Below, piece by piece: positions 52,195-52,786 of a stretch of 61,806 nucleotides of DNA. Location of the stretch: IMG/VR virus record IMGVR_UViG_3300046479_000013, positions 1-61,806 of that record. The stretch is one strand, 5' to 3'. The notes under the pieces were generated by a model. That model was not told the DNA's origin, made no database searches, and saw nothing but the letters and a program-made list of their open reading frames with translations. Position 1 is the stretch's first letter. Each line of letters opens with the position of its first letter. A program made the translations under genes and the position numbers. This DNA comes from a virus.

Positions 52195-52258
52195 GCGAAG
52201 ATAAGGAGACCAAGATCGGGTTTCTTCAAAGGGTAACCGATTCCTGAACGACCTTCGC
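52195..52258 (-). ncRNA. Scaffold RNA copy E, nearly empty
   Basis: P1 GCGAAG/CTTCGC (6 bp), loop GTCGTT against TCCTTAT, P2 ATCGG/CCGAT with about 17 bases inside. Confidence 0.7.
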
Positions 52259-52721
52259 TAGATAGGGCCGGGTGAGAATCTCGATGTTGTTACCCGGATC
52301 GGAGCAGGACTACAAGCCTGTTCCTTCGCAACATCATATCAGTCCGCTTCGACCCCTGCCTGGGGAGGATGAACTGAGGAGCCTACGGGGTGTTCGCCGA
52401 ATCCCCGCCATCGTTCCCCTCTGTAAGTCAAGTTGGGGCCACTCTAGTTACCCTATCCCTCAAGAACCCAGCGGTAAACACTCTGTGGCTCTCATGTATC
52501 CCCTCATATTCCCTCACAAGGCTCGATGGATGGGGCACCACGGAGCCGAGGTAGCTAAAGCTTTCTGGCGCAGGACGTATAGCGGACCTGATGCGCATAA
52601 CCCTGGCACGAGGGGCATCCTTGTAATCTAGAGCTAGATCCTATCACTAATATGAACACTCTGGTTCTCATCTCCGGAGCTTGCACCAAGGGGGAGCGAT
52701 TGGAAAACCCCTTGATCTTAT
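52259..52721. other. Unassigned non-coding region
   Basis: About 460 bases without a credible ORF on the minus strand; a plus-strand frame at 52272-52631 lacks a ribosome binding site. Many short GC-rich complementary stretches (for example GATGTTG with CAACATC at 52282-52334) suggest a folded RNA. I do not recognise RNase P, SRP or 6S RNA motifs. Confidence 0.4.
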
Positions 52722-52786
52722 GGTCTCGATGAGTTGGCGAAGACGGGTATATAAGCCAGATAACCGTTCCTCAGCGACCGAGAGCC
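52722..52786 (-). ncRNA. Scaffold RNA copy F, nearly empty
   Basis: P1 TCTCG/CGAGA (plus GG/CC beyond a bulge), loop GTCGCT against CAACTCAT, P2 ACGG/CCGT with about 17 bases inside. Confidence 0.65.

What the first reader, a model, noticed from the sequence alone, without database searches (positions are those of the whole stretch)
52195..52786. Scaffold copies with almost no cargo
Copies E, F and I have P2 closed by about 17-19 bases in place of a tRNA. They may show the scaffold without an insert, or they may be what remains after excision. Their short loops all begin TTA[CT]C, matching the bases just before the tRNA 3' halves in the loaded copies. This suggests the tRNA halves sit at a fixed insertion point.
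Basis: partly seen in the sequence, partly recalled or inferred. Interest (0 to 1): 0.8.

Follow-up and report, generated by a model that had tools for sequence, protein, structure and literature searches.

The report
Short phage Y RNAs for Ro60
The "scaffold" is the protein-binding stem of Y RNAs, small non-coding RNAs held by the ring protein Ro60, which this phage also encodes; the copies with almost no cargo are a conserved short form of these RNAs, not leftovers from excision.

Summary
On the minus strand the window carries ten copies of one RNA scaffold, and three of them (52783-52724, 52258-52195, 49994-49924) are short, with loops starting TTATC or TTACC. Two lie inside the given interval; the third is outside it.

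The same contig encodes Ro60 (29730-31301, minus). The scaffold sits just upstream of Ro60 genes, on the same strand, in many bacteria and phages: 155 copies, against 0 of 103 on the opposite strand. These are Y RNAs. A covariance model built without any window sequence picks exactly the three short copies as its top window hits. Short and tRNA-like copies coexist in 19 of 160 Ro60 loci, so the short form is a conserved class, not an excision scar.

TTAYC (Y = T or C) belongs to the scaffold. The tRNA-like modules are circularly permuted tRNAs opened near the anticodon stem: 42 of 74 are called as tRNAs when circularised, against 0 of 5770 controls. Many short copies elsewhere carry an anticodon-arm-like hairpin; in this window's three it is only approximate.

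Phage-borne Y RNAs are already known. The permuted-tRNA layout with an anticodon arm may be a new detail. Function is inferred.

The parts
52724..52783 (-). short Y RNA (60 nt), loop TTATCTGGCTTATATAC
   Evidence: top window hit of covariance model R1, built without window sequences: 28.8 bits, E 0.0013
52195..52258 (-). short Y RNA (64 nt), loop TTACCCTTTGAAGAAAC
   Evidence: R1 hit 23.0 bits, E 0.018
49924..49994 (-). short Y RNA (71 nt), loop TTATCCTGTTAATGATGCC; starts 4 nt after tRNA-Leu(caa)
   Evidence: R1 hit 20.6 bits, E 0.055
51862..51997 (-). Y RNA with permuted-tRNA module; circularised module called tRNA-Asn(gtt); full acceptor stem closed by a short loop
   Evidence: YrlA match E 2.3e-4, 31.5 bits, below the gathering score of 69
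51741..51853 (-). Y RNA with permuted-tRNA module lacking most of the acceptor stem; circularised module called tRNA-Arg(acg)
   Evidence: YrlA match E 0.14
49732..49916 (-). Y RNA with large module: T arm, acceptor helix closed by 5 nt, D arm
48698..48822 (-). Y RNA with hairpin cargo, no T arm seen
48591..48683 (-). Y RNA with hairpin cargo, no T arm seen
   Evidence: R1 hit 20.1 bits, E 0.069
47804..47935 (-). Y RNA with tRNA-like module; starts 4 nt after tRNA-Ser(gct)
   Evidence: tRNA call on the circularised module is weak, tRNA-Glu(ctc) in 2 cuts
44465..44576 (-). Y RNA with T-arm hairpin but no clear D arm; starts 4 nt after tRNA-Met
29730..31301 (-). Ro60 (Rsr) gene, 523 aa, TROVE and vWA domains
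   Evidence: Pfam TROVE 6.6e-45, vWA_Ro60 1.7e-64; nearest solved chain 2nvo, D. radiodurans Rsr, E 2.8e-124

Best explanation
The three 'cargo-less' copies are short-form Y RNAs, members of a ten-copy Y RNA set made by a tailed phage that also encodes their partner Ro60. Shown computationally: each RNA has a terminal stem P1 (across the family its end pair is U-A with GGUCG/UUAUC or C-G with GGCCG/UUGCC), a UCG/CUUA internal loop, a second stem P2, the constant GGUUAYC, and then either a short hairpin loop, another hairpin, or a circularly permuted tRNA (anticodon arm, T arm, acceptor arm closed by a loop, D arm). Inferred: P1 plus the internal loop is held on the outside of the Ro60 ring, and what follows GGUUAYC is the exchangeable effector end. 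Long forms present a tRNA mimic that can tether tRNA-binding or RNA-processing proteins to Ro60, as proposed for YrlA and shown for the Deinococcus Y RNA. Short forms occupy and gate the Ro60 surface, and possibly present an anticodon-arm-like loop, without the tether. Variation in cargo is variation between paralogous Y RNAs, not loading and unloading of one RNA.
For: Ro60 is in the same contig with both domains and full-length similarity to solved Rsr and Ro60. Lys170, Arg174 and His187 of the Xenopus protein, by position in the printed alignment, correspond to window Lys171, Arg175 and His188, invariant in seven phage Ro60s; H187S loses Y3 binding (PMC11277228). The nearest relative found by Ro60 (51% identity) has five tandem copies just upstream of its Ro60 gene, two tRNA-like and three not, with no tRNA genes called there. 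Annotated Ro genes of actinophages have loaded and empty copies directly upstream (model hits). In 160 Ro60 loci, 155 scaffold copies with TTAY lie upstream on the Ro60 strand against 0/103 on the opposite strand and 2/209 inside the gene; 70 tRNA-like, 59 short, 26 other. P2 covaries: 131 double-change cells in the whole structure against 50 shuffled, score 0.698 against at most 0.196 when slid. Model R1, without window sequences, ranks the three short copies first in the window; the first chance hit has E 5.7. [quoted passage not shown] smegmatis (PMC4726728); the gate and tether roles are published for D. radiodurans.
Against: No expression or binding data for this phage. None of the copies reaches Rfam's YrlA gathering score (31.5 against 69), and true YrlA RNAs have a different constant element (GGAACUAC instead of GGUUAYC). 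The Y RNA set lies 13-23 kb from the Ro60 gene instead of next to it. P1 was part of how copies were found. E-values of the home-made model are rough. The gate and tether roles are carried over from D. radiodurans. No PNPase gene was found among the window ORFs scanned with Pfam, so a host enzyme would be needed.
Confidence: 0.85

Rival explanations
1. The short copies are scars left after tRNA cargo was excised or lost, or empty acceptor sites for tRNA halves.
For: TTAYC is shared at the same place by loaded and empty copies; presence and absence vary copy by copy.
Against: Short copies are about as widespread as loaded ones (59 against 70), keep covarying P2 stems and hold the same position in related genera. 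Their loops hold anticodon-arm-like structure more often than chance (21 of 56 against 0.9), not tRNA-end stubs.
Confidence: 0.05
2. The loaded copies are permuted tRNA genes whose module is cut out and ligated into working tRNAs, and the short copies are by-products or decayed genes.
For: 42 of 74 modules are called as tRNAs with ordinary anticodons when circularised; bacterial Ro60/Y RNA operons often carry the RNA ligase RtcB (PMC7790460).
Against: The acceptor arm is usually closed by a tight loop (3-8 nt in 37 of 63 modules), leaving little or no room for a discriminator base and CCA. Copy 51853-51741 lacks most of the acceptor stem. No RNA ligase was seen among the window ORFs scanned with Pfam. 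The link to Ro60 is unexplained.
Confidence: 0.07
3. The Y RNAs are decoys or sensors for tRNA-cleaving host defences: short forms show an anticodon arm alone, long forms a whole tRNA mimic, and Ro60 protects or delivers them. (A special case of the best explanation as to function; compatible with it as to identity.)
For: 7-nt loops with U at position 33 follow GGUUAYC far above chance (U33 in 40 of 56, about 4 expected); anticodon triplets are diverse; a competitive-inhibitor role for the YrlA tRNA-like domain was proposed in PMC7790460; the window is rich in tRNA genes.
Against: In the window's own three short copies the anticodon-like hairpin is imperfect. Non-phage bacteria have the same RNAs. 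No nuclease was tested; PMC7790460 reports that YrlA is not a substrate of the anticodon nuclease.
Confidence: 0.2

Closest known systems
YrlA, Y RNA-like RNA of Salmonella and other bacteria (Rfam RF02553)
   Same: Ro60-linked RNA; terminal stem, small internal loop (CGAANG opposite CUUG), second stem, constant element, then T arm, acceptor helix closed by a loop, D arm. Several YrlA matches also have sequence resembling an anticodon arm there, for example AGA-CTTTTAA-TCT in L194.
   Different: Window copies score 31.5 bits or less (gathering 69); the constant element is GGUUAYC, not GGAACUAC; three copies have no tRNA-like module and two have only hairpins.
Y RNA of Deinococcus radiodurans with Rsr and PNPase (RYPER)
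   Same: Ro60 ring plus a Y RNA whose lower stem binds it; proposed gate and tether (PMC4726728, PMC8394870). The phage Ro60 is closest to this Rsr among solved structures.
   Different: No sequence comparison with the Deinococcus Y RNA was made here, and PNPase was not found among the scanned window ORFs.
Y RNAs and Ro-like proteins of actinobacteriophages
   Same: Same scaffold and TTAYC element directly upstream of annotated Ro-like RNA binding protein genes, with both empty and loaded copies.
   Different: Those examined have two or three copies beside Ro60; this contig has ten, scattered among tRNA genes 13-23 kb away.
Listeria phage P100/CKA15 Ro-like gene and putative Y RNAs (PMC12282133)
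   Same: Phage Ro-like protein with structured repeated RNAs upstream, near a tRNA cluster.
   Different: P100 gp165 matches DUF2828 and DUF7788, not TROVE, and its RNAs lack this motif.

Membership tests
Ro60-bound Y RNAs (bacterial and phage) | Ro60 (TROVE plus vWA) encoded by the same genome | tested here: met
   window 29730-31301
Ro60-bound Y RNAs (bacterial and phage) | Conserved terminal stem with internal loop, shared with RNAs next to Ro60 genes | tested here: met
   (155 against 0/103), model R1, covariation
Ro60-bound Y RNAs (bacterial and phage) | Physical binding to Ro60 through the terminal stem | not testable with these tools
   needs a binding assay; only residue conservation seen
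YrlA (RF02553) | Score above the family gathering threshold of 69 bits | tested here: not met
   best window match 31.5 bits
YrlA (RF02553) | tRNA-like module with T, acceptor and D arms | tested here: not met
   absent in the three short copies; present in some loaded copies
Permuted tRNA genes | Module reads as a complete tRNA after circular permutation | tested here: inconclusive
   42 of 74 modules do, but acceptor ends are mostly closed by 3-8 nt loops; not applicable to the short copies
Permuted tRNA genes | Processed to a free, aminoacylatable tRNA | not testable with these tools
   needs RNA analysis

The most novel reading that the evidence does not exclude
Phages and bacteria that carry Ro60 make sets of Y RNAs that display anticodon arms: alone in the short forms and as part of circularly permuted whole tRNAs in the long forms. 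The Ro60 particle would present a chosen set of tRNA pieces, for example to bait or sense tRNA-cleaving nucleases or to capture tRNA-processing enzymes during infection.
Probability: 0.25. Interest if true: 0.8.

Novelty: new variant of a known kind. Interest (0 to 1): 0.6.

Why it matters
It names an otherwise puzzling phage RNA array and shows that 'empty' Y RNAs are a widespread class standing beside the tRNA-like ones. It gives a compact, testable structure (P1, UCG/CUUA loop, P2, GGUUAYC) for finding Y RNAs that the Rfam YrlA model misses. If the anticodon-arm reading holds, it ties the poorly understood Ro60 particles of bacteria and phages to tRNA damage and to the contest between phages and tRNA-cleaving defences.

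Tried and rejected
Permuted group I intron as scaffold: considered from memory; the scaffold is only about 60 nt and Rfam gave no intron match. Hammerhead ribozyme: a CTGATGA on the plus strand is not kept in the sister copy (CAGATTA). Filing as RF02553: below gathering score; loose YrlA hits also appear in 7 of 14 control genomes, so the YrlA match alone was not trusted. DNA similarity to known phages: none. Relatives found with the neighbouring NAMPT gene had no scaffold pattern. Sinorhizobium phage Phosso: no convincing array beside its Ro gene. Promoters and terminators: no more than in shuffles. Listeria P100 as expression evidence: different protein family and different RNAs. Direct presence/absence at orthologous positions in a close relative of this phage: no close enough relative was found.

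Full report
What was checked. The finding describes copies of an RNA scaffold whose second stem, P2, is closed by 17-19 bases instead of a tRNA. Read on the minus strand, this is correct. A descriptor of the outer stem finds ten copies on the minus strand and two on the plus strand, with a mean of 1.7 in shuffles. Three are short: 52783-52724, 52258-52195 and 49994-49924. The loops begin TTATC or TTACC. The given interval holds only two of the three; no further copy is hidden in it. The inner stem P2, not used for detection, is specific to each copy: swapping 3' arms between copies raises the energy from -10.4 to -5.8 kcal/mol, 0 of 20000 permutations as good.

What it is. cmscan gives a sub-threshold match to YrlA, a bacterial Y RNA, inside one loaded copy. 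Loose YrlA hits also occur in control genomes, so this was only a lead. The window encodes an intact Ro60 at 29730-31301, close to the solved Rsr of Deinococcus and Ro60 of Xenopus. Using Ro60 as bait, the nearest relative (51% identity) has five tandem scaffold copies just upstream of its Ro60 gene, two with tRNA-like cargo and three without. Actinophages with annotated Ro-like proteins show the same, for example one loaded and two empty copies in FuzzBuster. A covariance model (R1, below) also finds copies beside the Ro genes of FuzzBuster, Sixama, Jedediah, Cashline and MeganTheeKilla; of its 12 hits in that search only L018:1297-1360 had been used to build it.

Scale. In 80 bacterial and 80 viral Ro60 loci, 155 scaffold copies carrying TTAY lie within 1.5 kb upstream of Ro60 on its strand, against 0 of 103 descriptor hits on the opposite strand and 2 of 209 inside the Ro60 gene. 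They fall into 70 tRNA-like, 59 short and 26 other; 19 loci have both short and tRNA-like copies. In the 28 short copies aligned, the inner end pair of P1 is U-A in 13 and C-G in 15; pairing there was required in the search, but P2 was not, and all nine P2 pairs show compensatory changes. Covariance model R1, built from these 28 copies, none from the window, returns the three short window copies as its three best hits (E 0.0013, 0.018, 0.055), then the hairpin copy at 48677-48597 (0.069), then chance (5.7 and up). E-values are rough because calibration is short; the ranking is the argument.

The cargo. In the loaded copies the order is anticodon arm, T arm, acceptor arm, D arm. Circularising the module lets ARAGORN call a tRNA in 42 of 74 modules, against 1 uncircularised and 0 of 5770 random controls; in the window 51997-51862 reads as Asn(gtt) and 51853-51741 as Arg(acg). 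Many cut points were tried per module, and the control got the same total number of trials. Acceptor arms are mostly closed by 3-8 nt loops (37 of 63), which fits a tRNA mimic better than a precursor. After GGUUAYC, hairpins with a 7-nt loop and a stem of at least 4 are enriched (56 against 21 in shuffles), and T at the second loop position is strongly enriched (40 against 4). Within the short class 21 of 56 fit the strict anticodon-loop form, against 0.9 in shuffles. Copies are related to each other, so these counts are not independent events, though more than 30 different anticodon triplets occur. In the window's own short copies the match is partial: CTGTTAA inside an 8-nt loop (49994), CTGGCTT on a 3-bp stem (52783), and CTTTGAA without a good stem (52258).

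Excision or short form. Short copies have a stable place: a short copy 520-530 nt and a tRNA-like copy 430-445 nt upstream of Ro60 in three related loci (L027, L051, L077), and a short copy about 100 nt upstream in Sorangium-like loci. This does not look like sporadic loss. TTAYC is part of the scaffold, not an insertion mark.

How it probably works. [quoted passage not shown]). By inference, long copies here are tethers with a tRNA mimic as handle, and short copies are Ro60 ligands without the handle. Three of the ten copies begin exactly 4 nt after a tRNA gene (49994 after tRNA-Leu, 47935 after tRNA-Ser, 44576 after tRNA-Met; coordinates), which suggests they are released from tRNA transcripts by tRNA 3' processing; no promoter or terminator signal stands out.

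Known or new. Y RNAs and Ro60 in bacteria and phages are known; mycobacteriophage Y RNAs are cited to Chen et al. 2014 (through PMC12282133). True YrlA RNAs above the Rfam threshold share the architecture but not GGUUAYC, so these copies are a separate group of Y RNAs. The literature that could be read describes D, T and acceptor arms only; the primary papers on bacterial Y RNAs could not be read, so priority for the anticodon arm and the short class is uncertain.

Noticed in passing
window 49994, 47935 and 44576 (-): Three Y RNA copies begin exactly 4 nt downstream of a tRNA gene (tRNA-Leu 49999-50073, tRNA-Ser 47940-48026, tRNA-Met 44581-44657), suggesting release by tRNA 3' processing.
   Followed up: partly
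L200 (Listeria phage P100) 15092-15802, minus strand: Upstream of gp165 (DUF2828/DUF7788) lie three tandem stem-loop units of similar layout, each an outer stem followed by ACAGCAA(A/T)TACTA; possibly a different Y-RNA-like family.
   Followed up: partly
window 42475-42550 (-): ARAGORN reports a tRNA with anticodon CTA (called tRNA-Pyl), that is, an amber suppressor-type tRNA; stop-codon reassignment in this phage was not tested.
   Followed up: no
window 50086-50173 (-): Rfam scores a tRNA here (47.9 bits) that ARAGORN does not list.
   Followed up: no
window 50378-50793 (-): A tmRNA gene (Rfam 97 bits) within the tRNA and Y RNA region; a tmRNA also lies downstream of Ro60 in Gordonia phage Sixama (L022 7989-8410).
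   Followed up: no
window 1902-3257 (+) and 54238-56764 (-): A poly(A) polymerase or CCA-adding enzyme-like gene, and a NAMPT-type gene beside a nucleotidyltransferase-NUDIX gene (likely NAD salvage).
   Followed up: no
L169 (IMGVR_UViG_3300020020_000028), upstream of Ro60: Nine scaffold copies upstream of one Ro60 gene, the largest Ro60-adjacent array seen; a good comparator for array growth.
   Followed up: partly
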